From Prochlorococcus marinus CUG1416 (lineage in GTDB: Bacteria > Cyanobacteriota > Cyanobacteriia > PCC-6307 > Cyanobiaceae): 64,000 nt of DNA. The stretch lies in contig NZ_JAAORM010000004.1 of NCBI RefSeq assembly GCF_017695965.1, forward strand, positions 1 to 64,000. The letters run 5' to 3'. Made by a program: the position numbers and the translations under genes. This document shows, in pieces, positions 4,123 through 24,568 of the stretch (position 1 is its first letter; each line of letters opens with the position of its first letter). The notes beneath the pieces were generated by a model. The model saw nothing but the letters and a program-made list of their open reading frames with translations. It did not search any database and had not been told where the DNA came from.

Positions 4123-4992
4123 ATGAAATTTTTTTTTATTTTAATTATTTTTATCATTTTTTTAATTTTTATAATTGCAAGGGATTGTCAAATTAAAAAG
4201 AAAAGGTTTAGATTAAATAATGCCTTAAATTCAAATTTCTTTATTCAAACAATTAATAATTTAATAGAAGAAAACAAATACAATTTATTAGAGGAAAGGA
4301 TTAGATTAAGGGAAATAGATGCTTACGGTAACGAGGATTATAAAAAATGGATTGGCAATCCACCTCTTGATGAGAAAGCTATAGAGATCAATATATATAA
4401 TGGTTCCAAGCGATTTAAAGAGGGTATACCATACTTTTGGGAAAAAATAATTTTAAAAAAATTTGGAAGTATGGAATTATTTTTCGAAAAGTGGAGATCT
4501 TATTGTGATGAGAATCCTACTATTGATGATGAGATAATTGGATCCATTAGAAATCTTGAAAATGAAGATTGGTTTGTATTCATAGCAAGTCAAATAGAGA
4601 AATCATGCCTAAACCTAATAGAAAATGATTATTCAAAAAAAATTAACGAAAGCTATAAAAAAGGTATTAAATTTGAAAATCATTGCATGAAAATCCTCAA
4701 ACAATATGGCTGGGAAGTTAAAGAAACCCCTAATACTGGAGATCAAGGGGTTGACTTAATTGCGTCAATAAATGATTTAAGAATATGTATTCAATGCAAA
4801 GATCATGAAAAAGCTATTGGAAATAAAGCAGTGCAGGAAATTTCAGCTGGTAAATTATTTTGGAAAGGTACACATGCAATAATAGTCTCAAAATCTGGCT
4901 TTACAAAGTCTGCCCATCAACTAGCAAAATCAAATAAAGTAAAACTAATCAATGAATATCAATTGAAAGATATAGAAAAGTTTATTCTTTAA
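4123..4992 (+). CDS. Membrane-anchored Mrr-type restriction endonuclease-like protein
   Basis: 289 residues in three parts: an N-terminal membrane helix (MKFFFILIIFIIFLIFIIA), a charged middle region (about 25-175) without a recognised domain, and a C-terminal Mrr catalytic domain (about 178-289). The PD-(D/E)xK-like active site is visible as E185 (GIKFENH), D211 (GDQGVDLIA) and Q224-C-K226 (IQCK), with the usual spacing. Members of this family cut DNA, often modified DNA, but membrane-tethered forms in cyanobacteria are uncharacterised. No methyltransferase is adjacent. Nuclease activity is inferred from intact catalytic residues. Confidence 0.78.
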   Translation: MKFFFILIIFIIFLIFIIARDCQIKKKRFRLNNALNSNFFIQTINNLIEENKYNLLEERIRLREIDAYGNEDYKKWIGNPPLDEKAIEINIYNGSKRFKEGIPYFWEKIILKKFGSMELFFEKWRSYCDENPTIDDEIIGSIRNLENEDWFVFIASQIEKSCLNLIENDYSKKINESYKKGIKFENHCMKILKQYGWEVKETPNTGDQGVDLIASINDLRICIQCKDHEKAIGNKAVQEISAGKLFWKGTHAIIVSKSGFTKSAHQLAKSNKVKLINEYQLKDIEKFIL

Positions 4993-4997
4993 ACACT

Positions 4998-5402
4998 CTA
5001 CAACAATTGTGTTAAGCCCTCTTTGTACAGCAAAAGTGTAGTAAAAATCCCTGAGGCCCACATTAAACCTCTAGCTGTTGGGATATTAAATATATAGGCA
5101 CCAATATATAAAAAACGGAAAATAGGATGGATCAATGCTGCAATTATTGAAATATTAGAGTCAGTTAAAGTAATCAAACAAAGAAGACATGCCGGAGCAT
5201 GTAGGGAAATACTTTCCCAACAATTTTGATGACACCAAACTGCTCTTTTACCAAAAGAAGGTAATTCGTCGAATAAGGCCCTTGGAGCAGACATATTTTC
5301 AATAGAATATCCTGCTTTAACTCTCCCTAAAGTTAATGGAATAATAGATAATAAAACAACACCAACTGATAGACAAAGACTCCAGGCAAAAGCTACTTGC
5401 AT
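4998..5402 (-). CDS. MAPEG family membrane protein
   Basis: 134 residues with four predicted membrane helices. The loop KRAVWCHQNCWESISLHAPA is the family's R-A-x-x-N-x-x-E signature, and HPIFRFLYIGAYIFNIPTARG is the second conserved stretch (R-x-x-Y...Y). Eukaryotic MAPEG members are glutathione-dependent membrane enzymes. The bacterial proteins of this short form are mostly uncharacterised. Converges with the Mrr gene, ending 5 bases from its stop. Confidence 0.75.
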   Translation of the reverse strand: MQVAFAWSLCLSVGVVLLSIIPLTLGRVKAGYSIENMSAPRALFDELPSFGKRAVWCHQNCWESISLHAPACLLCLITLTDSNISIIAALIHPIFRFLYIGAYIFNIPTARGLMWASGIFTTLLLYKEGLTQLL

Positions 5403-5523
5403 ATGATTTAAATAATATTTATTAGCTTAATTATTGCAGCAAGTTATCGTGATAAATGAAAAATCATTACCATAGATAAAACTTCGCAAAAAATGCTGTA
5501 ATTTATATTAAAAAAAATCATTT

Positions 5524-5649
5524 ATGGATATTTCAAAGATAGTTTTAATTTTTGGCACAAGTTTACTAATATATTTTGCTTTTCTGTTTTTAGGATTTTT
5601 TCTTAAGAATAAAAATTTAAAAGCACAGAATCTAAAAAAAGAAGAATAG
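5524..5649 (+). CDS. 41-residue single-helix membrane peptide
   Basis: An intact 42-codon frame beginning MDISKIVLIFGTSLLIYFAF, one long hydrophobic helix followed by a basic tail (KNKNLKAQNLKKEE). The size and layout resemble the many one-helix accessory subunits of photosynthetic membranes, but there is no recognisable motif. Support is the clean start, the helix and the charge pattern only. Confidence 0.4.
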   Translation: MDISKIVLIFGTSLLIYFAFLFLGFFLKNKNLKAQNLKKEE

Positions 5650-5781
5650 ATTATTAATTCCACAAAAATTTAATATTTTTCTCTATATTTTTATATCTTT
5701 TTGGATATATTTGATGGAAATAAAATTTGATCCAAATAATAATTAGTGATAATAGAAATTTCATGAAAGAGTTGCTGATAC

Positions 5782-6075
5782 ATGAAAAAATTTTATAAAT
5801 TTCTTAAAAGTTTTCTATTTATATCATTTTGGCTTATTTTATCCTCATTTTTAACCCAATATTGGAATACCTTTCATTGGGAATATATTTACTTAAACTT
5901 CAGAATTATATTTGATAAAGAATTTTGGTTTATTGTAGAAAAAATTCTTTTAGGATTTGATATTGGTTACTGGTTAGAAGATGCACTAAAATTCTTAAGT
6001 TATGAAATACCTAAAGAATCTTTTAAATATTTTCCAATTTATTTCTTTTTAAAGTCTATTTGGATAAATAATTAA
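5782..6075 (+). CDS. Small hydrophobic/aromatic protein, unknown
   Basis: 97 residues, very rich in Phe, Trp and Tyr. One N-terminal membrane helix (FLFISFWLILSSFL) is followed by amphipathic aromatic segments (NTFHWEYIYLNF, FDIGYWLEDALKF). No family recognised. Flanked by AT-rich spacer on both sides; the 221 bases after it (6076-6296) show nothing I can support. Confidence 0.45.
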   Translation: MKKFYKFLKSFLFISFWLILSSFLTQYWNTFHWEYIYLNFRIIFDKEFWFIVEKILLGFDIGYWLEDALKFLSYEIPKESFKYFPIYFFLKSIWINN

Positions 6076-6296
6076 TTTATATTTCTAAAAGATTTTAATA
6101 AATTGCTTAAAATTCTTGAATCAAGTCGATGATTTTATTTTTCTTAAAGTAAATAAAGTACCTTCATCAAGTCTGTAGATTAAATGTATTTATAGTTAAG
6201 AAAGTTGTTTCTAACCACCCTTTTTTTAATTACTAATCTCATTCATAACACAAATCTTATCTGCACTTTTTAGATATAAAGAATCAAATTTAATAA

Positions 6297-6677
6297 TTGA
6301 TCTTCGAATTCCATTTAATAAACGCCAAGTATAAAGCTAAGGATAAATACTCACCTCCATATGCTATATTCTACCCAGAATATGTTGATTTGATGACAAA
6401 GAGCTATTGGCTAAAGAAAATTTCAATCCCAAATGCTGAATTATTTCTGGAATATATAAGAACAGTTTTGCCATGGATTAAATCTGTGGGAGGAGTAATA
6501 GTAAAAAGAGATTTAATCCAAGAATCAACCTCAAATGAATGGGATGGAGGGCAGCTTGGATTAGTAATAGAATTCGAATCAAAATTTGCTGCTAAAAAAG
6601 CATTTTATTCTGAAGTATTTCAGAAATATCTCCAGTCGAGAGATTTAATGGAACTTGTTACTATAAGCACTCTTTAA
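6297..6677 (+). CDS. DUF1330-like protein (dimeric ferredoxin-like fold)
   Basis: 126 residues. The layout follows DUF1330: a Y-P-E-Y segment before a helix, a GG-x-x-VKRD strand, then GLVIEFESKFAAKKAFYSEVF (strand followed by the A-x-x-x-Y/F helix). These are small soluble dimeric alpha/beta proteins, some proposed to be oxygenase-like, with no settled function. The match is by pattern only. The frame begins ATG ATC TTC; an upstream RBS is not evident. Confidence 0.55.
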   Translation: MIFEFHLINAKYKAKDKYSPPYAIFYPEYVDLMTKSYWLKKISIPNAELFLEYIRTVLPWIKSVGGVIVKRDLIQESTSNEWDGGQLGLVIEFESKFAAKKAFYSEVFQKYLQSRDLMELVTISTL

Positions 6678-14405: not shown

Positions 14406-15191
14406 TTATTTGCGAAGTTTAGGAATCAAAAGAGATGCGACACAAATAACACTAATTGCAGGCCCAGGCGACAAATTAAAGACTATAGAGAGAATAAACC
14501 CCAGAAGTGAGATGCATAATCCAAAAAATGAAGACCTCATCATTGCAATTCTTAAACTATGAGCCTTATTTAGCCCTAACAAAGTTGGGGTAGAAAGGAG
14601 AGCAATTACAAGAATTACTCCCACTGCTGACATTGAACTAACAATTACTAATGCCGTTGTAAAACTCAAAGCAAGATTTAATAAAGAAACGTTTATACCA
14701 CTCGCGGATGCACCTTCTGGATCCAATCCCACATAAACAACCTTTTCATATCCAAAAGTCATTAAAAGTATAAATACTAAAAAAGCAATTATTGTTCTAA
14801 GTAAATCTCCAAAATTTGCTGTCAATAAATCGCCAAATAATACTGCCTCCAAATCAATCCTTATTCCGAGTAGAGGGATAATAAGGACTCCAAACCCAAG
14901 CATTCCGGCTAATATTGTATTCATTATTGCTTCATAGTTTTCACTATTTTTATTAGTTAAACTTTCCGCAATTACAGAACCTAAAAGACCACTGATAACC
15001 CCACCAATTGAAGGATGAATTCCAAGCGCTAAGGCTAAAGCAAGTCCTGGTAAAACGCAGTGAGAAATTAAATTTACTTGAAGTAATCTCCTATGTGTTA
15101 TTAATACAGTTCCCATCGCTGGACATAGAATTCCTGAAAAAATAGTTATTATTAAAGGAACAAGCCACCAACTGCTATTAATAAAAGACAT
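14406..15191 (-). CDS. znuB: Zinc ABC transporter permease (ZnuB type)
   Basis: 261 residues with about eight membrane helices, ABC-3 permease family (zinc/manganese importers). The early LITHRRLLQVNLISHCVLPGLALALALG is the typical cytoplasmic coupling region (L-x-x-x-S-H-x-x-L-P-G). Forms the channel of a ZnuABC importer with ZnuC and ZnuA. Specificity for Zn is inferred from zur and the His-rich ZnuA next door. It is separated from znuC by zur on the opposite strand; only 17 bases separate its start from that of zur. Confidence 0.88.
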   Translation of the reverse strand: MSFINSSWWLVPLIITIFSGILCPAMGTVLITHRRLLQVNLISHCVLPGLALALALGIHPSIGGVISGLLGSVIAESLTNKNSENYEAIMNTILAGMLGFGVLIIPLLGIRIDLEAVLFGDLLTANFGDLLRTIIAFLVFILLMTFGYEKVVYVGLDPEGASASGINVSLLNLALSFTTALVIVSSMSAVGVILVIALLSTPTLLGLNKAHSLRIAMMRSSFFGLCISLLGFILSIVFNLSPGPAISVICVASLLIPKLRK

Positions 15192-15208: not shown

Positions 15209-15643
15209 ATGATCAAAAATACGGGACAAAAAAAGATTTCGGAAACAATGGTAACTAAGCCTGACATTACCAAAAGACAAGAGCAACTTCTTGAAGAACT
15301 TAATAAATGTGATGATGAACTGAGCGGTCAAGAGTTGCATAGACAATTGATTGAAAGCGGAAAAGCTATGGGACTGACAACTGTTTACAGGAATCTTCAA
15401 GTTCTTATAAAGCATGGTTTAATACGTTCTAGACATCTCCCAACAGGAGAGGTTCTTTACACTCCCGTAGATAGAGACATTCATCATTTGACTTGTGTTC
15501 AATGTGGTGAGACATCAAAAATGAAAGGGTGCCCTGTAAAAGATATTCATACACCCAAAACAAATCCAAAGAAATTCCAATTGTTGTTTCATACCCTGGA
15601 GTATTTCGGACTTTGCCAGAACTGCTATCAAGCACAAAGTTAA
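15209..15643 (+). CDS. zur: Fur-family zinc regulator (Zur)
   Basis: 144 residues (131 if the second ATG, MVTKPDITKRQ at 15248, is the start). N-terminal winged helix with GLTTVYRNLQVLIKHGLI, then the metal domain: HHLTCVQCG (C96, C99) and LCQNCY (C136, C139) form the structural zinc site, with the H-H pair as part of a sensing site. Placement among znuABC makes zinc-responsive repression more likely than iron. Runs opposite to znuB (17-base divergent gap) and converges on znuC (14-base gap). Confidence 0.85.
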   Translation: MIKNTGQKKISETMVTKPDITKRQEQLLEELNKCDDELSGQELHRQLIESGKAMGLTTVYRNLQVLIKHGLIRSRHLPTGEVLYTPVDRDIHHLTCVQCGETSKMKGCPVKDIHTPKTNPKKFQLLFHTLEYFGLCQNCYQAQS

Positions 15644-15657
15644 AACTAAATATTTTT

Positions 15658-16428
15658 TTAATCACAACAATTATTATCCTCAATTGAGCTGATATTTATA
15701 TCATCTAATTTATCTTTTATAGAAGCAGGGCTTCCAGAGGCCAATACAGCTTTATCCAAAACAATAACTTGATCATAACTATTTAACGAGGAACCCCAAT
15801 CATGACTGCTTACCATTAAAGAAAGACCCGCATCTGCAAGTTGACGAACAATTTTTAGAAAATCGTCCTTTGCAGGTGGATCTAAAGCTGCACAAGGTTC
15901 ATCAAGAAGGTAAATTTTTGCTGGAGACATTAATGTTTTGGCTAATAAAGCTCTTTGTTGTTGTCCACCAGATAAAGAATCAAGCCTTCTGTTAGCAATA
16001 TTTGCAATGCCGACTCTTTGCATTGTGGCCTCCAATTCACAACATTTATTAATCCATGCATTAGGGTTGGCAAGAAGAGCTTTTATTTGAAAAGGACTAC
16101 TACTTTTTGATTTTGAGTATTTTATTTGTCCTAATGAAACTAGTTTTTCTACAGTTATTGGAAATTTCCAATTCATAGAGCTTCTTTGTGGCATAAGTGA
16201 GACTTGAGATCTTTGTCTAATTAACTTCTCCCCGTCAATTGTTATCTGGCCATTATCCGGAATACATTGTCCCTGCAATATTCTTAAAAGAGTAGATTTG
16301 CCAGCTCCATTTGGACCAACTAGCGCTGTTAGAGTTCCAGGTTTAATCTCAACCGATACCTTACTTAAAACTGGCTTATTTTTTTTTGTGTATGAATAGG
16401 TTAAATTTTCAGCGACTAAAGTAGCCAT
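15658..16428 (-). CDS. znuC: Zinc ABC transporter ATPase (ZnuC type)
   Basis: 256 residues. Walker A GPNGAGKST (38-46), Q-loop in SLMPQRSS, signature LSGGQQQRALLAK, Walker B IYLLDEPCAALD, and H-loop SSHDWG are all intact. Energises zinc import through ZnuB. C-terminal end is Asp/Asn-rich with NNCCD, two adjacent Cys that might bind metal. The start faces znuA across a 135-base divergent promoter region containing a Zur-box-like palindrome. Confidence 0.9.
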   Translation of the reverse strand: MATLVAENLTYSYTKKNKPVLSKVSVEIKPGTLTALVGPNGAGKSTLLRILQGQCIPDNGQITIDGEKLIRQRSQVSLMPQRSSMNWKFPITVEKLVSLGQIKYSKSKSSSPFQIKALLANPNAWINKCCELEATMQRVGIANIANRRLDSLSGGQQQRALLAKTLMSPAKIYLLDEPCAALDPPAKDDFLKIVRQLADAGLSLMVSSHDWGSSLNSYDQVIVLDKAVLASGSPASIKDKLDDINISSIEDNNCCD

Positions 16429-16527
16429 TAATTAATCTTTAAAAAAGTCACTTTTTAAGCTTACCAATAATACAAGTTTCATATTGTTTTCACAACATTT
16501 GATGACTTAACTTGCTTTAAATAATGA

Positions 16528-16542
16528 AAATGATTATCATTT
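16528..16542. promoter_or_regulatory. Zur-box-like palindrome between znuC and znuA
   Basis: AAATGATTATCATTT is a perfect 7-1-7 palindrome of the Fur/Zur type (core TGATtATCA), with partial extension on both sides. It ends 21 bases upstream of the znuA ATG and 100 bases upstream of the divergent znuC start, so it could control both. With zur next door, zinc-dependent repression is the natural reading. No binding data can be seen here. Confidence 0.75.
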
Positions 16543-16563: not shown

Positions 16564-18024
16564 ATGTCAATTTTGAAAAGACTTTTAACAAATAAAACAA
16601 GTTCAAGTAATTCAATTATCAAAAATTCCGTGATAGCAGGAACAATAATATTTTCTGGTTTTGGGCAGGATGTTTTGGCTAAAGGAAAGTCATACGTAGC
16701 AGTAGAACCACTAGTTTGTGATTTAGTTAAATCAATTGCATTACCCTCTGACGAAGTTACATGCTTAGTAGATAGAAAGCAGGATGTTCATGACTTTAAG
16801 ATCAATCCAAGACAAGCTCAATTACTTAACAACGCCGATAAAGTATTCACTCTTGGTAAAGAAATGACTCCAAGTATGAGGAATTGGGAAAGCAAAAAGC
16901 AAACTGTTGTTGTAGGTGTTAGTGCAATAGATGTAGATGACCACTCTGATCATGGAGGTCACGACGATCACTCTGATCATGGAGGACATGATGATCACGC
17001 TGAAGGAGCTTTCGAGTGGGCAGGTAAATTCCAGTTATCTAAAGGGTCCTATAAATGGTCATTTGAAAAAGTCGATGGCGAATATGCAGATCCTGCAATG
17101 AAGATGGTGATTCTCAAATCTAATGATATAGAAGGGTCTGAAGATTTAGCTAAAGAATTATTAGGATCTAAAGACTCAATAAGCAAGAAAAATAATGATA
17201 CTTTGATCGTAAGTAATAAAGCTTTTATTCTTAACTTTGATCAAAGAAAAGAAAGCACTGTTTTTAACGTGGATATCAAAGAAGATGGTCAATATATATT
17301 TTTTACTGAACACATGCCTTTTGAGTTTGAATCAACTCAACACTTTTTTAAAGACGTTTTAAATAGTGATGTCGAACCAATAGCACAATTACCAGATGAA
17401 GGTGAGGGGCATCATCACCATCATGACCATGGAGGTCTAGATCCACATGTATGGCATGATCCACATAACATCATAAAAATGGGAGATGTTATAAGCAAAA
17501 GTTTAAAGAAAGATATTTCTGTTTTTAATAGAGGGGACAGAAAACTAATTAATGAAAGATTTGAAAAGGCTGATTCTATCTTGGAAGACTTGGATAGTTG
17601 GATCGTCGAACAAGTAGGCTCTATTCCTGAGGAGAACAGAGTAATTGTGTCTAAACACAAGGCGATGGAATACTACGGTGATGCTTTTGGTTTTGAAACC
17701 ATTAGTTTACTTGACTTTCTTGGAGACTCCTCAAGCTTAAGGCCAGAAAATATAAAGTCTGTACTTAAAGAACTTAAAGAAGATAATGTTTTGGCTCTTT
17801 TCCCAGAGCAAAAACCTGCTTCCAAACTGTTAAGAAATCTAAGCAGACAAAGTTCTATTCCTATTTCTTCTGATCAAATATTTGTTGATGGATTGATGAT
17901 GGATGGGAATACTGTTTCAGTAGCTGTACACAACACTTGTACAATTGTTGATTCATTAGGTGGAAGCTGTGATAAAGAATCTGGCTCCAATCTTGAGTCT
18001 GAATGGTACAAGCTTTCAGATTAA
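16564..18024 (+). CDS. znuA: Zinc-binding periplasmic protein ZnuA with inserted domain and His-rich loops
   Basis: 486 residues, well above the usual 300-350. A signal peptide ends near LAKG (about 40). The cluster A-I binding fold is split: N-lobe with H76 (DVHDFKINP), then a His/Asp loop built of a tandem HSDHGGHDD repeat (126-145), an insert of about 105 residues (150-256, FEWAG to FEF), a second His run (283-289), and the C-lobe from GLDPHVWHDP (291-300) with H365 (SKHKAMEYYGDAFG). The insert resembles residues 221-325 of the downstream GTPase. Expressed from the Zur-box promoter; probable zinc import. Confidence 0.9.
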   Translation: MSILKRLLTNKTSSSNSIIKNSVIAGTIIFSGFGQDVLAKGKSYVAVEPLVCDLVKSIALPSDEVTCLVDRKQDVHDFKINPRQAQLLNNADKVFTLGKEMTPSMRNWESKKQTVVVGVSAIDVDDHSDHGGHDDHSDHGGHDDHAEGAFEWAGKFQLSKGSYKWSFEKVDGEYADPAMKMVILKSNDIEGSEDLAKELLGSKDSISKKNNDTLIVSNKAFILNFDQRKESTVFNVDIKEDGQYIFFTEHMPFEFESTQHFFKDVLNSDVEPIAQLPDEGEGHHHHHDHGGLDPHVWHDPHNIIKMGDVISKSLKKDISVFNRGDRKLINERFEKADSILEDLDSWIVEQVGSIPEENRVIVSKHKAMEYYGDAFGFETISLLDFLGDSSSLRPENIKSVLKELKEDNVLALFPEQKPASKLLRNLSRQSSIPISSDQIFVDGLMMDGNTVSVAVHNTCTIVDSLGGSCDKESGSNLESEWYKLSD

Positions 18025-18101
18025 AATTTTCTAATAAAAACGGTTTTCATTTCTTATTATTACTATTATTAAAATATTGTTTATTTAGTAAAAATCAGTA
18101 A

Positions 18102-19451
18102 ATGAGTATCAATGATAAAGTTCCCGTTACTATTCTCACTGGATTTTTAGGTTCAGGGAAGACTACTTTGCTTAATAGAATATTGAGTGAAGAGCACGGG
18201 AAAAGAATAGCCGTAATTGAGAATGAATACGGTGAAGTAGGTATAGATCAAGGGCTCGTAATTAATGCCGATGAAGAAGTGTTTGAGATGTCAAACGGGT
18301 GCATTTGTTGTACTGTTCGCGGCGATTTAATAAGAGTCCTTGGCAACCTTATGAAAAGAAGAGATAAGTTTGACTATGTTTTAGTAGAAACGACAGGATT
18401 AGCAGATCCTGGACCAGTTGCTCAGACATTTTTCATGGATGAAGAAATTAGTTCTGAATTTACTCTTGATGGAATTGTAACTTTAGTTGATGCTGCTCAT
18501 ATTGATCAGCAGCTAGGAAGGAGTGATGAAAGTTCAGAACAAGTAGCATTTGCAGATGTTCTGGTCCTTAATAAAACTGATTTAGTCTCTGATGATGCAC
18601 TAGATACTCTTGAATCGAGATTGAGAGATATGAACCGAATGACTCGAATTATTCGAGCCGAGAATGCCAAAGTGCCAATTGAAACAGTCTTAAATCTAAG
18701 TGCATTTGATCTCGATCAGATCCTTAAACGCAGACCAACATTTCTTGAACCAGAATATCCTTTTGAATGGACAGGTGTTTACGATCTTGATGCAGGTAAA
18801 TATGAATTAATGCTAGAAGAAGGACCAGATCCAGAAATGTCCCTAGTAGCTCTCGCTAACCAAGGCGAGAGTGAGGAGGAACTTAAAGATGGTGCTGAAT
18901 CCTCCGTAAGACTTTATGCAGAAAAAGCTAATACTCTAGAACCTGGAAATACTATCCCATATGGAGAACATATAAATCTCAAATTGGAGGATAAAGGAAA
19001 TAAATCCTTCATCCTGAACATAGAAAAGCCATTAAAAATAGGTTTGTTTACACAGCACACTGCAGAAGAATTCAATATGAAAGTCATTAAAAGTGACGAA
19101 AATAAAGAGATTCCATTTAATACTGAAAGGTTCTGGCAAGCAGAGCATGAACATGATGATGAAGTAGGGTCAATTGCTATAGAGCGTTTTGGAGATGTTG
19201 ACCCAGAAAAACTAAATACTTGGATGGGAAGGCTTCTCTCAGAAAAAGGAGTTGATATATTCAGAACTAAAGGTTTCATAAGTTACTCAGGTAACCCAAG
19301 GCGAATAGTTTTCCAGGGAGTACACATGTTATTTACTGCACAACCTGATAAAGAATGGGGTAACGAAACTCGTAGAAATCAACTTGTTTTTATCGGTAGA
19401 AATCTAAATGAGAAAGAGATGCAAGAAGGCTTTGATAAATGCCTGATATAG
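18102..19451 (+). CDS. COG0523 (CobW/ZNG-type) GTPase, probable zinc metallochaperone, with insert
   Basis: 449 residues. G3E GTPase motifs intact: GFLGSGKTTLLN (14-25), ENEYGEVGID (40-49), the metal-binding CICC (67-70), ETTGLADP (96-103) and NKTD (157-160). CobW C-terminal domain from about 355 (ERFGDVDPEKLNTW) to the end. Between them, residues 221-325 form an insert (FEWTG...FTQHTAEEF) similar to the one in ZnuA, followed by a metal-suited EHEHDDE. Location after znuA points to zinc delivery when zinc is scarce. Its last 13 bases overlap the WD40 gene. Confidence 0.88.
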   Translation: MSINDKVPVTILTGFLGSGKTTLLNRILSEEHGKRIAVIENEYGEVGIDQGLVINADEEVFEMSNGCICCTVRGDLIRVLGNLMKRRDKFDYVLVETTGLADPGPVAQTFFMDEEISSEFTLDGIVTLVDAAHIDQQLGRSDESSEQVAFADVLVLNKTDLVSDDALDTLESRLRDMNRMTRIIRAENAKVPIETVLNLSAFDLDQILKRRPTFLEPEYPFEWTGVYDLDAGKYELMLEEGPDPEMSLVALANQGESEEELKDGAESSVRLYAEKANTLEPGNTIPYGEHINLKLEDKGNKSFILNIEKPLKIGLFTQHTAEEFNMKVIKSDENKEIPFNTERFWQAEHEHDDEVGSIAIERFGDVDPEKLNTWMGRLLSEKGVDIFRTKGFISYSGNPRRIVFQGVHMLFTAQPDKEWGNETRRNQLVFIGRNLNEKEMQEGFDKCLI

Positions 19452-21252: not shown

Positions 21253-21528
21253 ATGGTTAGATATTATTGCCCCTATTGCAATCCTAAATATCAATTTCAA
21301 AAACAATCCTCAAATGGCACTTTGATTTGTGGCTTGTGTGGAGAGGATCTTGTAAAAAAACCATTTATTAGGTTAAATCAGATAATTGCTTTAGTTGCTG
21401 CTTCTTCATTACTTCTTCCATTAATATATACTTTTATTTTTTTAATTAAAAATCAAATCAATCCCCCTAATAAAAATTATCAAGCAAATAAGAAATCTTT
21501 GATAATCATCAAAGATAAAATTTCATAA
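21253..21528 (+). CDS. Zinc-ribbon membrane protein, unknown
   Basis: 91 residues: an N-terminal zinc ribbon with CPYC (6-9) and CGLC (26-29), then one membrane helix (IIALVAASSLLLPLIYTFIF) and a short charged tail. The paired CxxC knuckles strongly suggest a bound zinc. Similar small ribbons occur in picocyanobacteria; function unknown. Confidence 0.65.
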   Translation: MVRYYCPYCNPKYQFQKQSSNGTLICGLCGEDLVKKPFIRLNQIIALVAASSLLLPLIYTFIFLIKNQINPPNKNYQANKKSLIIIKDKIS

Positions 21529-22182: not shown

Positions 22183-23625
22183 ATGAAATATATGTTTTCA
22201 AGTTATCGTCCTAAAAATAGTTTTGATGAATACTTTAAGGACAATGTTAATTCTGCTAGAGAAATATTAATTCCACTTCTGTCTTCTTTAGATAATATGG
22301 GTCTCGAAGAATTAAATAGAAATCATTCAGCAGCAAAAAAATTATTATTAAGACATGGTGCAACTTTCAGACTAAACGATACTGGTTTAAAAGGTACGGA
22401 GAGAATATTACCTTTTGATCCACTTCCAAGAATAATAAGTAAAGATGATTGGTTAATATTAGAAAAAGGTCTTAAACAAAGGCTTGAGGCAATTGATTTA
22501 TTTCTTGATGATATTTATAATTCCCAAAATATTATTAATGACGGAATAATACCAAGAGAGTTAATAGAGAGTTCTGATGGTTGGCGGCCGCAGATGATAG
22601 GTTTCAAGCCTCCATTGAATAAATGGTGTCAGATTTCAGGACTTGATTTAATAAGGGACAGAAAAGGTGATTGGCATGTTTTAGAAGATAATTTAAGGTG
22701 TCCTTCTGGGGTTGCTTATTTCTTAGAAAATAGATTAGTTATGAAAAATATTTTCCCTAATCTTTTCTCTGGAAGAATAGTAAAGCCAATTGATGAATAT
22801 CCATCATATCTTTTAAAAACTCTTCAAGAGCTAGCTGTTTGGACAGACACACCTAAGATAGTTCTACTAACTCCAGGAATTTTTAACAGTGCTTATTTTG
22901 AACATAGTTATTTAGCTCAAGAAATGGGTATACAACTAGTTCAGGGTCATGACTTAGTTTGTAATGATGATTATGTATATTTAAAAACTACATCTGGGTT
23001 AAAAAGGGTGGATGTCATTTACAGACGAATTGATGATGATTTCTTAGATCCTTTAAATTTTAGAAAAGATTCCTGCCTTGGTGTGAGCGGATTACTTAAT
23101 GTTTTCAAGGCAGGTCATGTTGCTTTAGCAAACGCCCCCGGTACAGGCATAGCAGATGACAAAATGATTTATTCTTTTGTTCCAAAAATGATTAAATATT
23201 ATCTTGATGAAGAAATTATTATTAAAAATGTAGAAACATATATTTGTCATTACCAAAAGGATCAAGAATATGTTCTAGAAAATTTACCAAAACTTGTTGT
23301 TAAGTCTGTTTCTGAAGCTGGCGGCTATGGAATGTTAATTGGGCCTCAATCTACAAGCAGTGAGATAGAAGAATTCGCTAATAAAATTAGAAAAAATCCT
23401 AGAAATTTCATAGCCCAACCAACATTAGAATTATCTACTGTTCCATCTTTATGTGATGGAGAACTATATCCATGTCATGTTGATTTAAGACCATATATAT
23501 TGAGAGGTAAAGATTCATGGGTTAGCCCAGGTGGGCTTACGAGAGTAGCATTAAAAAAAGGATCATTAGTCGTCAACTCTTCTCAAGGTGGGGGATGCAA
23601 AGATACATGGGTTGTAGGAAAATAA
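22183..23625 (+). CDS. Circularly permuted ATP-grasp protein
   Basis: 480 residues, COG2308-type (DUF404/DUF407). Recognised from the N-terminal YRPKNSFDEYF, GLKQRLEAIDLFLDDIY, VLEDNLRCPSGVAY, VIYRRIDDDFLDPL and the C-terminal VVKSVSEAGGYGMLIGP with HVDLRPYIL. Family members are predicted to make peptide-like bonds with ATP. Two bases before the alpha-E gene, and followed by a transglutaminase-like gene: the standard three-gene neighbourhood in many bacteria. The product of this pathway is not established. Confidence 0.9.
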   Translation: MKYMFSSYRPKNSFDEYFKDNVNSAREILIPLLSSLDNMGLEELNRNHSAAKKLLLRHGATFRLNDTGLKGTERILPFDPLPRIISKDDWLILEKGLKQRLEAIDLFLDDIYNSQNIINDGIIPRELIESSDGWRPQMIGFKPPLNKWCQISGLDLIRDRKGDWHVLEDNLRCPSGVAYFLENRLVMKNIFPNLFSGRIVKPIDEYPSYLLKTLQELAVWTDTPKIVLLTPGIFNSAYFEHSYLAQEMGIQLVQGHDLVCNDDYVYLKTTSGLKRVDVIYRRIDDDFLDPLNFRKDSCLGVSGLLNVFKAGHVALANAPGTGIADDKMIYSFVPKMIKYYLDEEIIIKNVETYICHYQKDQEYVLENLPKLVVKSVSEAGGYGMLIGPQSTSSEIEEFANKIRKNPRNFIAQPTLELSTVPSLCDGELYPCHVDLRPYILRGKDSWVSPGGLTRVALKKGSLVVNSSQGGGCKDTWVVGK

Positions 23626-23626
23626 T

Positions 23627-24568
23627 ATGCTTTTAAGTCGTGTAGCAGAATCTCTTTATTGGATCAATCGTTATTTAGAACGTGCCGAAAATATATCTCG
23701 TTTCGTGGAAGTAAGTGAAGCTATGTCATTAGATTGTCCACCAGGAAGTGCAGAACCTTGGCTCCCATTAATAGATGCTTCAAGTGACAGAGAATCGTTT
23801 GATAAAAGATTCCCGGAGAAAAAACCTGATGACGTTATTAATTTTTTAATAAGAGATCGTTTAAATCCAAACAGCATAATTTCTTGCATTCAATTGGCAA
23901 GAGAAAACGCACGACAAATAAGAGATGTAATGACCTCAGAAATGTGGGAACAAATTAATATTTTATACTGGAATATGCAAGAAGGAGAAACAATATGGAA
24001 TAAGCCAAGACAAGAACAATTAAGTGAAATAAGGAGGGAATGTCAGCTTTTTTATGGAATTACAGATGCGACTCTAAGCAAAGACCTTTCTTGGAGATTT
24101 AGCATTCTTGGAAGATTAATAGAAAGAGCTGACAAAACGTCTAGGATTTTAGATGTGAAATATTATTTACTTCTTCCCAGCTTAGATAAACTTGGAGGAG
24201 TTCTTGATGAGTTGCAATGGATTGCTCTTTTACGCTCAGCTGGTGCTTATCAAATGTTTAGGAAAGCAGAGCAAAATTCTATAAAGCCTAATTCAGTTGC
24301 AAGATTTCTTTTACTTGATCCAATTTTCCCTAGATCAGTAAGATACTGTTTAGACGGGATTAGCAATACTCTTAAAATGATAGATTCGGCTCCACCTCCT
24401 GAAAACCCTTCTGAATTAGAGTGCATGAGAGGTTTGCTAAAAGCAAAATGGAGTTATATCAGAATTGAAGATATAATCAATGATGGTTTACATGAGGCAA
24501 TCGATTCATTGCAAATTGATTTAAATAAATTAAATGATCTCATTCAAGAAAAATATTTTATTAATTAA
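23627..24568 (+). CDS. Alpha-E domain protein
   Basis: 313 residues, COG2307/DUF403, almost all alpha-helical. Hallmarks: LLSRVAESLYWINRYLERAENISRFVEV at the N-terminus, ENARQIRDVMTSEMWEQIN, and RLIERADKTSRILDVKYY. It always accompanies circularly permuted ATP-grasp proteins. It probably acts with the ATP-grasp enzyme as a scaffold or partner subunit. Two-base spacing from the upstream gene indicates one transcript. Confidence 0.9.
   Translation: MLLSRVAESLYWINRYLERAENISRFVEVSEAMSLDCPPGSAEPWLPLIDASSDRESFDKRFPEKKPDDVINFLIRDRLNPNSIISCIQLARENARQIRDVMTSEMWEQINILYWNMQEGETIWNKPRQEQLSEIRRECQLFYGITDATLSKDLSWRFSILGRLIERADKTSRILDVKYYLLLPSLDKLGGVLDELQWIALLRSAGAYQMFRKAEQNSIKPNSVARFLLLDPIFPRSVRYCLDGISNTLKMIDSAPPPENPSELECMRGLLKAKWSYIRIEDIINDGLHEAIDSLQIDLNKLNDLIQEKYFIN

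What the first reader, a model, noticed from the sequence alone, without database searches (positions are those of the whole stretch)
16564..19451. Shared insert domain in ZnuA and the COG0523 GTPase
ZnuA residues 150-256 and GTPase residues 221-325 both begin FEW[AT]G, carry a Y-x-x-x-x-x-x(G/A)-x-x-DP-x-M strand pattern, and end FT[EQ]H-x-x-x-EF, over nearly equal length (about 105 residues). Each is followed by a His/Glu-rich stretch. One protein is exported, the other cytoplasmic. A common module on the importer's binding protein and on the intracellular GTPase may be a zinc-sensing or zinc-handing-over domain that has not been described as such. I do not recognise it as a named family.
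Basis: partly seen in the sequence, partly recalled or inferred. Interest (0 to 1): 0.75.

Follow-up and report, generated by a model that had tools for sequence, protein, structure and literature searches.

The report
Shared unnamed domain on zinc-handling proteins
A marine cyanobacterium carries the same unnamed protein module plugged into its zinc-capturing protein outside the cell membrane and into a metal-handling GTPase inside the cell, and related modules sit in zinc- and nickel-associated proteins of bacteria and salt-loving archaea, so it may be a general metal-gripping part whose binding has yet to be tested.

Summary
ZnuA residues 150-256 and GTPase residues 221-325 are homologous along their whole length (profile-profile E 1.9e-14, 101 columns). 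Both are extra pieces in known folds: in the GTPase where E. coli YjiA has 5 residues, in ZnuA inside the His-rich loop. Relatives occur in haloarchaeal ZnuA-type proteins, haloarchaeal lipoprotein-like proteins (one after urease genes), an Alicyclobacillus membrane protein, and COG0523-type GTPases of cyanobacteria and Proteobacteria. Over 31 rows only E, D, H, E and F are invariant, and all 31 have at least two histidines within 45 residues downstream. The module entered the ZnuA loop at least twice. No Pfam, NCBIfam or PHROGs model credibly covers it. Best reading: an accessory metal-recruiting or hand-over domain that works like AdcA's second domain plus His loop. Metal binding is inferred, not shown. 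AlphaFold models (pLDDT 72 and 63) suggest a beta-sandwich but cannot fix fold or site. 'Sensing' has no support. The ZnuA copy is probably not a local copy of the neighbouring GTPase's module (AU p 0.020).

The parts
14406..15191 (-). znuB-like permease gene
   Evidence: ORF; identified by reading the sequence and by position, no family search run on it
15209..15643 (+). FUR-family regulator gene, probably zur
   Evidence: PF01475 E 2e-19
15658..16428 (-). znuC-like ATPase gene, divergent from znuA
   Evidence: ORF; identified by reading the sequence (ABC ATPase motifs, recalled)
16525..16539 (+). Zur-box-like palindrome TGAAAATGATTATCA between znuC and znuA
   Evidence: 1 mismatch to a consensus recalled from memory; the window as a whole has no excess of such sites at up to 3 mismatches (98 found, 96.6 expected), and one other site with 1 mismatch lies at 21468. 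A matching or similar palindrome occurs somewhere in 76 of 80 related loci; its place was printed for 10 of them, upstream of the module
16564..18024 (+). znuA, zinc-type ABC substrate-binding protein, 486 aa
   Evidence: PF01297 E 8e-44, two stretches
16684..16896 (+). ZnuA N-lobe piece (residues 41-111)
   Evidence: aligned to solved structure 4utp residues 32-102, weak on its own (11 bits, i-Evalue 1.2)
16936..16998 (+). Asp/His-rich tract before the module (about residues 125-145)
   Evidence: sequence
17011..17331 (+). the module in ZnuA (residues 150-256)
17407..17436 (+). GHHHHHDHGG tract after the module (residues 282-291)
   Evidence: sequence
17422..18021 (+). ZnuA C-lobe
   Evidence: residues 287-449 aligned to 4utp 131-287
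18102..19451 (+). COG0523/CobW-type GTPase gene, 449 aa
   Evidence: PF02492 E 2e-61 and PF07683 E 2e-24; YjiA is the only solved protein matched at E 1e-10 or better
18123..18653 (+). GTPase domain (residues 8-184) with the GCICC motif
18762..19076 (+). the module in the GTPase (residues 221-325), in the linker between the G domain and CobW_C
19137..19163 (+). QAEHEHDDE stretch after the module
19167..19445 (+). CobW_C domain
   Evidence: PF07683
19439..20512 (+). WD40-repeat protein gene, overlapping the GTPase gene by 13 bases
   Evidence: PF00400 E 4e-26

Best explanation
The two segments are copies of one protein domain of about 105 residues that no library tried here names. It acts as an accessory metal-recruiting and hand-over module: a divalent metal ion (zinc here; perhaps nickel or cobalt in other carriers) is held by the invariant Glu-2, Asp-27, His-101 and Glu-105, and the neighbouring His-containing tract takes the ion on to the main site of the host protein. 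In ZnuA it sits in the His-rich loop and would raise capture of scarce zinc in the periplasm; in the GTPase it sits between the G domain and CobW_C and would hold or pass the ion in the cytoplasm. Shown here: homology, positions, spread, invariant residues, His-containing flanks, at least two separate insertions into the same loop. Inferred: metal binding, which residues bind, direction of transfer.
For: End-to-end homology. Four of the five invariant residues over 31 rows from bacteria and archaea are metal-ligand types (binomial p 0.008 with columns taken as independent). Of 79 cyanobacterial-phylum hits cut by search coordinates, 76 keep all five; the other 3 are one broken fragment and two that my script cut at the wrong place. 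L164 has lost the conserved Trp yet keeps the Glu. Hosts: ZnuA, COG0523 GTPases, lipoprotein-like proteins (one after urease genes), a membrane protein whose C-part weakly matches MntP, near a gene annotated as a metal-sensitive regulator. At least 2 His within 45 residues downstream in 31 of 31 rows; His makes up 8.5 percent of the two flanks against 2.1 percent of the rest. The module entered the same ZnuA loop at least twice (AU p 0.0009). The znu cluster of Synechococcus WH8102 rises in a zur mutant (PMC9337993, passages). In AdcA a second domain and the His loop together aid zinc recruitment under restriction (PMC7858048 section 8).
Against: No metal binding was measured and no solved relative exists by sequence. 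Models are weak (pLDDT 72 and 63) and I could not read their coordinates, so the four residues are not shown to lie together. ZnuA proteins without the module exist in the same genus, so it is dispensable there. Upstream of the module only 13 of 31 rows have 2 or more His; in the GTPases the downstream tract is short (2-4 His), and His stretches are common in COG0523 proteins anyway, about 40 percent of them (PMC2770081, passages). Two carriers (L177, L178) have no plain metal neighbour. An invariant charged residue can also be structural.
Confidence: 0.55

Rival explanations
1. The module is a beta-sandwich docking or spacer domain that binds a partner protein or glycan; the invariant residues hold its fold, and metal is only incidental.
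For: Weak fold matches are to GOLD domains, carbohydrate-binding modules and other beta-sandwiches, which bind proteins or sugars (general knowledge). A WD40 protein gene follows the GTPase gene in several loci.
Against: One protein partner cannot easily serve an exported ZnuA and a cytoplasmic GTPase; most hosts and neighbourhoods are metal-related; the invariants are Glu, Asp, His, Glu and one Phe rather than mainly core residues.
Confidence: 0.22
2. The module is a zinc sensor or gate: metal binding changes the host's conformation to switch uptake or GTPase activity.
For: The His-rich loop of ZnuA has been proposed to be regulatory (Wei 2007, title only, seen in a reference list).
Against: Nothing here speaks for signalling; tandem copies in some ZnuA proteins fit capacity better than gating; not tested.
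Confidence: 0.1
3. The module binds an organic metal complex or metallophore rather than a bare ion.
For: Host proteins include importers that work where free metal is scarce; beta-sandwich folds often bind small molecules (both general knowledge).
Against: Would not readily explain a copy inside the cytoplasmic GTPase; metallophore genes were not looked for.
Confidence: 0.08
4. Origin rival: the ZnuA copy is a local duplication of the module of the neighbouring GTPase gene.
For: Genes are adjacent and co-oriented; a GTPase-length frame carries the module in 33 of the 33 genomes with a match, the ZnuA copy in fewer and only in the window's own family.
Against: The ZnuA module groups with haloarchaeal and membrane-protein modules (95/88) in the tree, and holding it with the GTPase modules of its own family is rejected, AU p 0.020. 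A looser grouping with all GTPase modules is not rejected (p 0.14), and branches are long.
Confidence: 0.12
5. Chance resemblance of two unrelated acidic beta-rich inserts.
For: Raw identity between the two kinds is only about 25-34 percent.
Against: 0 of 2000 shuffles, profile E 1.9e-14, and three separate single-sequence queries (lipoprotein, membrane-protein and GTPase module) recover the same 11 plasmid records, some rows at weak E-values up to 0.3.
Confidence: 0.01

Closest known systems
AdcA of Streptococcus (zinc SBP with His-rich loop plus a second domain)
   Same: An extra domain on a zinc substrate-binding protein together with a His-rich loop; there both aid zinc recruitment under restriction (PMC7858048 outline and section 8).
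   Different: In AdcA the second domain is C-terminal (AdcAC); here the module lies inside the loop, and the NCBIfam AdcA model matches only the ZnuA core, residues 278-422. That AdcAC is ZinT-like is recalled.
AztD / AztC
   Same: An accessory protein hands zinc to a cluster A-I binding protein, and the loop of that protein is needed (PMC6689063 passages).
   Different: AztD is a separate beta-propeller protein.
COG0523 GTPases (YjiA, CobW; subfamily 5 clusters with WD40 and znuABC genes)
   Same: Host of the second copy: G domain and CobW_C intact, GCICC motif, WD40 gene next to it (PMC2770081 passages).
   Different: YjiA lacks the module: residues 215-350 here stand where YjiA has 215-219. 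The passages of PMC2770081 that I saw do not mention it.
ZnuA / PF01297 substrate-binding proteins
   Same: Host of the first copy; PF01297 matches in two stretches.
   Different: About 175 residues (112-286) stand where solved relative 4utp has 28 (103-130).
GOLD and related beta-sandwich domains
   Same: Best, non-significant fold matches of the ZnuA-module model: GPR180 N-domain, SEC14-like and p24 GOLD domains, VIA Z 4.5-5.4.
   Different: No significant score and no sequence match; such Z values may mean only a common arrangement (note).

Membership tests
ZnuA (PF01297) | match over the curated cut-off | tested here: met
   150.5 bits against 29, two stretches
ZnuA (PF01297) | zinc binding and uptake | not testable with these tools
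   -
COG0523 GTPase | cobW nucleotide-binding domain plus CobW_C, GCxCC motif | tested here: met
COG0523 subfamily 5 | place in the COG0523 tree | not tested
   only the neighbouring WD40 and znuABC genes agree (PMC2770081 passages)
AdcA-type two-domain zinc SBP | AdcA model match including the C-terminal second domain | tested here: not met
   NCBIfam AdcA model matches only residues 278-422 at 41.7 bits against a cut-off of 700; the module gives no credible Pfam match. It may work like AdcA without being one.
GOLD domain | significant fold or sequence match | tested here: inconclusive
   Foldseek E 0.05-0.17, VIA Z up to 5.4, model pLDDT 72
a common module of ZnuA and the GTPase | homology over the full length | tested here: met
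metal-binding domain | metal-ligand-type residues conserved in all members | tested here: met
   E2, D27, H101, E105 invariant in 31 of 31 rows (rows were cut with patterns that required three of these four); 76 of 79 hits cut by coordinates, 3 explained
metal-binding domain | measured metal binding | not testable with these tools
   -

The most novel reading that the evidence does not exclude
A so far unnamed, mobile metal-acquisition domain with a Glu-Asp-His-Glu site that has been plugged repeatedly, beside His-containing tracts, into zinc-binding proteins of cyanobacteria and archaea, into lipoproteins and a transporter-like membrane protein, and into cytoplasmic COG0523 GTPases, so that metal is taken up and handed on with the same part on both sides of the membrane.
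Probability: 0.45. Interest if true: 0.75.

Novelty: new variant of a known kind. Interest (0 to 1): 0.6.

Why it matters
How marine picocyanobacteria of the open gyres live at very low zinc is called unknown in print (PMC9337993, abstract in the listing), and how COG0523 GTPases get their metal is little known. A testable domain on the importer's binding protein and on the intracellular GTPase would link the two and give four residues to mutate. It would also give a sequence handle on unannotated proteins: haloarchaeal lipoprotein-like proteins, and ZnuA and GTPase variants whose extra domain no library tried here covers.

Tried and rejected
Chance similarity: rejected. Known family: none at a credible level in Pfam, NCBIfam or PHROGs; PADLOC not tried. 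Solved relative by sequence: none (best E 0.39). Fold: Foldseek on the ZnuA model gave GOLD-like and many other beta-sandwiches, none at E 0.001 or better; the GTPase model gave mostly influenza haemagglutinins at E 0.05 and worse, which I take as noise of a poor model, with p24 GOLD at rank 36. Viral carriers: none found in viral contigs with three queries, none in phages with the ZnuA module alone. ZepA of Anabaena as the same thing: not supported; it is described as an Ig-like domain plus a domain of new fold, secreted (PMC10957091 passages). Diatom ZCRP-B: described as NikA-like (PMC9010474 passages). Weak matches of the ZnuA module to a roughly 1197-residue protein in Prochlorococcus (query residues about 37-89, E 0.002-0.1) were taken as chance; the profile scans (E up to 0.01) did not return them. 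The duplicated 873-residue ZnuA frame of G306 (L160, L215) holds a run of unknown residues and was not taken as a true two-copy protein. Literature: the listings of searches showed nothing on this domain; Barnett 2012 (PMC3323870), the paper I would expect to mention a ZnuA insert in marine cyanobacteria, is not held, so 'undescribed' is limited to these searches and libraries.

Sampling limits: the one genome-contig scan was filled by Prochlorococcus and close kin (80 of 280 relatives kept); carriers outside the cyanobacterial phylum come only from 11 plasmid records, so their true spread in Archaea, Firmicutes and Proteobacteria is unknown. In one search some rows are the same gene fetched twice (L205 and L035, L213 and L241, L224 and L240).
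Full report
What is there. The window lies in a small genome (1.67 Mb in 5 contigs) whose nearest named relatives are Prochlorococcus. znuB- and znuC-like genes run leftwards, a FUR-family gene and znuA rightwards, followed by a COG0523-type GTPase gene and a WD40 gene. A Zur-box-like palindrome lies between znuC and znuA (consensus recalled). The same or a similar palindrome occurs somewhere in 76 of 80 related loci; for the 10 loci whose hits were printed it lies about 540-570 bases before the module. In Synechococcus WH8102 the cluster synw0968-0973, with znuB, znuC and znuA, is up-regulated in a zur mutant, from which its authors infer repression by Zur; synw0972 and 0973 are called uncharacterized (PMC9337993 passages). 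That these two correspond to the GTPase and WD40 genes here is my assumption from gene order.

Homology of the two segments. The similarity is far above shuffles (0 of 2000), and profile comparison aligns the two families over 101 columns, first to last residue, at E 1.9e-14. Both are extra pieces in known folds. In the GTPase, residues 215-350 stand where YjiA has residues 215-219, in the linker between G domain and CobW_C. In ZnuA, residues 112-286 stand where the manganese-type relative 4utp has 103-130, and the module is bracketed there by two His-rich tracts (the N-lobe half of that alignment is weak on its own).

Spread. In the class-wide scan 33 of 388 genomes have the module. All 33 have it in a frame of GTPase length (449-473 residues; one of 680 that reads as a GTPase with extra upstream frame). 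ZnuA copies occur only in the window's own family, in genomes of 1.6-1.9 Mb. The gap is clean: the weakest match in the table has E 1.6e-13 and is a broken fragment. The phylum scan (30 of 386 genomes) adds four genomes of three other families, all with GTPase copies as read from the sequence. A tblastn of plasmid records with the ZnuA module brought in 8 records: haloarchaeal ZnuA-type proteins with the module in the His-rich loop (L174, L175, L180; L184 is a second place on a record), three haloarchaeal lipoprotein-like proteins, one of them directly after a run of urease genes in Natrinema, and an Alicyclobacillus membrane protein near a metal-sensitive regulator gene. Further queries added GTPases with a WD40 neighbour in Paraburkholderia and Pantoea. 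The lipoprotein label rests on a Cys after a hydrophobic start and is from reading, not a prediction. The Alicyclobacillus protein's host family is uncertain: only its C-terminal part gives a weak MntP match (E 0.0041, under the cut-off); an HxxxxDH-like motif as in nickel transporters is recalled.

Copy number in ZnuA. Within Prochlorococcus the ZnuA protein has no, one or two copies. On a tree of the ZnuA C-lobe (56 rows, 53 different), presence of the module needs at least 4 changes, which can be read as one gain and repeated losses, and the true two-copy proteins form one clade (97/95). Six genomes (G697, G709, G715, G723, G745, G763) hold two znuA-like genes, one of module-bearing length and one shorter (by frame length; modules checked for some).

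Origins. On the module tree the Prochlorococcus-family ZnuA modules group with haloarchaeal modules and the membrane-protein module (95/88), not with the GTPase next door. Forcing them together with the GTPase modules of their own family is rejected (AU p 0.020); forcing them with all GTPase modules is not (p 0.14). Branches are long and other taxa are thinly sampled, so this is a lead. On a tree of the host ZnuA C-lobes (16 rows), forcing the Prochlorococcus and haloarchaeal carriers into one clade is rejected (AU p 0.0009; the bootstrap had not settled and the haloarchaeal branch is very long): the same loop received the module at least twice, unless losses hide a single old event.

Invariant residues. 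In the 31-row alignment E2, D27, H101, E105 and F106 are invariant; W3, G5, L9, G12, Y14, P28 and L74 are nearly so. Four of five invariants are Asp, Glu or His, p 0.008 given the composition, with columns taken as independent. By relative entropy Trp-3, His-101 and Met-30 rank highest, and E2 and E105 only 17th and 18th. I checked that my cutting patterns, which required E2, H101, E105 and F106, had not made this up: of 79 cyanobacterial-phylum hits cut by search coordinates 76 carry all five; the other three are a broken fragment (L050) and two short-contig loci that the script cut at the wrong place and whose modules (L162, L163) do carry them. Many of the 76 are near copies. In L164 the Trp is replaced but the Glu stays.

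Structure. Both show strand-strand-strand-helix-strands in the same order, but the same rows were used for both. Foldseek finds nothing significant; the best matches of the ZnuA model are GOLD-like and other beta-sandwiches, those of the GTPase model mostly haemagglutinins. I could not measure distances between the four residues. E2 stands at the first strand's start, D27 follows the second strand, H101 and E105 follow a late strand, so they could meet at the neck of the domain, beside the His tracts; this is inference from strand order only.

Mechanism. Most likely an accessory metal module: an ion held by the four residues and passed along the flanking His tract to the host's own site. The nearest tested precedent is AdcA, where a second domain and the His loop are each dispensable but together matter for zinc under restriction (PMC7858048 section 8), and AztD, which hands zinc to AztC in a way that needs AztC's loop (PMC6689063 passages). 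ZnuA proteins without the module fit an aid rather than a necessity. That the same module serves proteins on both sides of the membrane argues for a ligand that both compartments share, an ion, rather than one partner protein. ZnuA's export and the GTPase's cytoplasmic place are from reading their N-termini. Sensing is possible but unsupported.

Known or new. No Pfam (2025), NCBIfam (June 2026) or PHROGs model credibly covers it, and the listings of paper searches showed nothing that describes it; the Barnett 2012 survey could not be read. A 2021 review says the annotated ZnuA cluster CK_2462 is almost absent from Prochlorococcus and that a further Zn-or-Mn binding protein, CK_1600, is unresolved (PMC8786288 section 11); whether the module-bearing ZnuA is CK_1600 I cannot tell. 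I rate it a new domain family of a known kind, accessory metal-recruiting domain, with metal binding still to be shown.

Noticed in passing
L032 1724-2464, L033 1735-2475, L204: ZnuA proteins of some Prochlorococcus genomes carry two tandem copies of the module (615-623 residue frames).
   Followed up: yes
L043, L044: In these genomes of the same genus the ZnuA lacks the module and has an Asp/His repeat instead.
   Followed up: partly
genomes G697, G709, G715, G723, G745, G763: Two znuA-like genes in one genome, one of module-bearing length and one shorter.
   Followed up: partly
L173 3467-4183: A second znuA in Haloarcula halophila is frame-shifted inside the module; an intact copy lies elsewhere on the same plasmid (L184).
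   Followed up: no
L181 about 4900-6360: The GTPase and WD40 pair of Pantoea soli looks decayed, in a cluster with a zigA gene, a nickel transporter gene and a FUR-type repressor gene.
   Followed up: no
L165 from 6588, L168: A second COG0523-like GTPase near this locus, with a very long His-Asn or His-Asp repeat and no module.
   Followed up: no
L160: The znuA frame of G306 holds a run of unknown residues with a repeated half, probably an assembly or masking effect.
   Followed up: no
L174 1-3083, L184 1-4066: Two haloarchaeal znu operons with the module lie behind two GTP-binding protein genes and a cobalt-factor II methyltransferase gene, a cobalt and zinc neighbourhood.
   Followed up: no
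window 22183-24568: Two neighbouring genes that read like a circularly permuted ATP-grasp protein and an alpha-E domain protein (recalled, not searched; ORFs).
   Followed up: no
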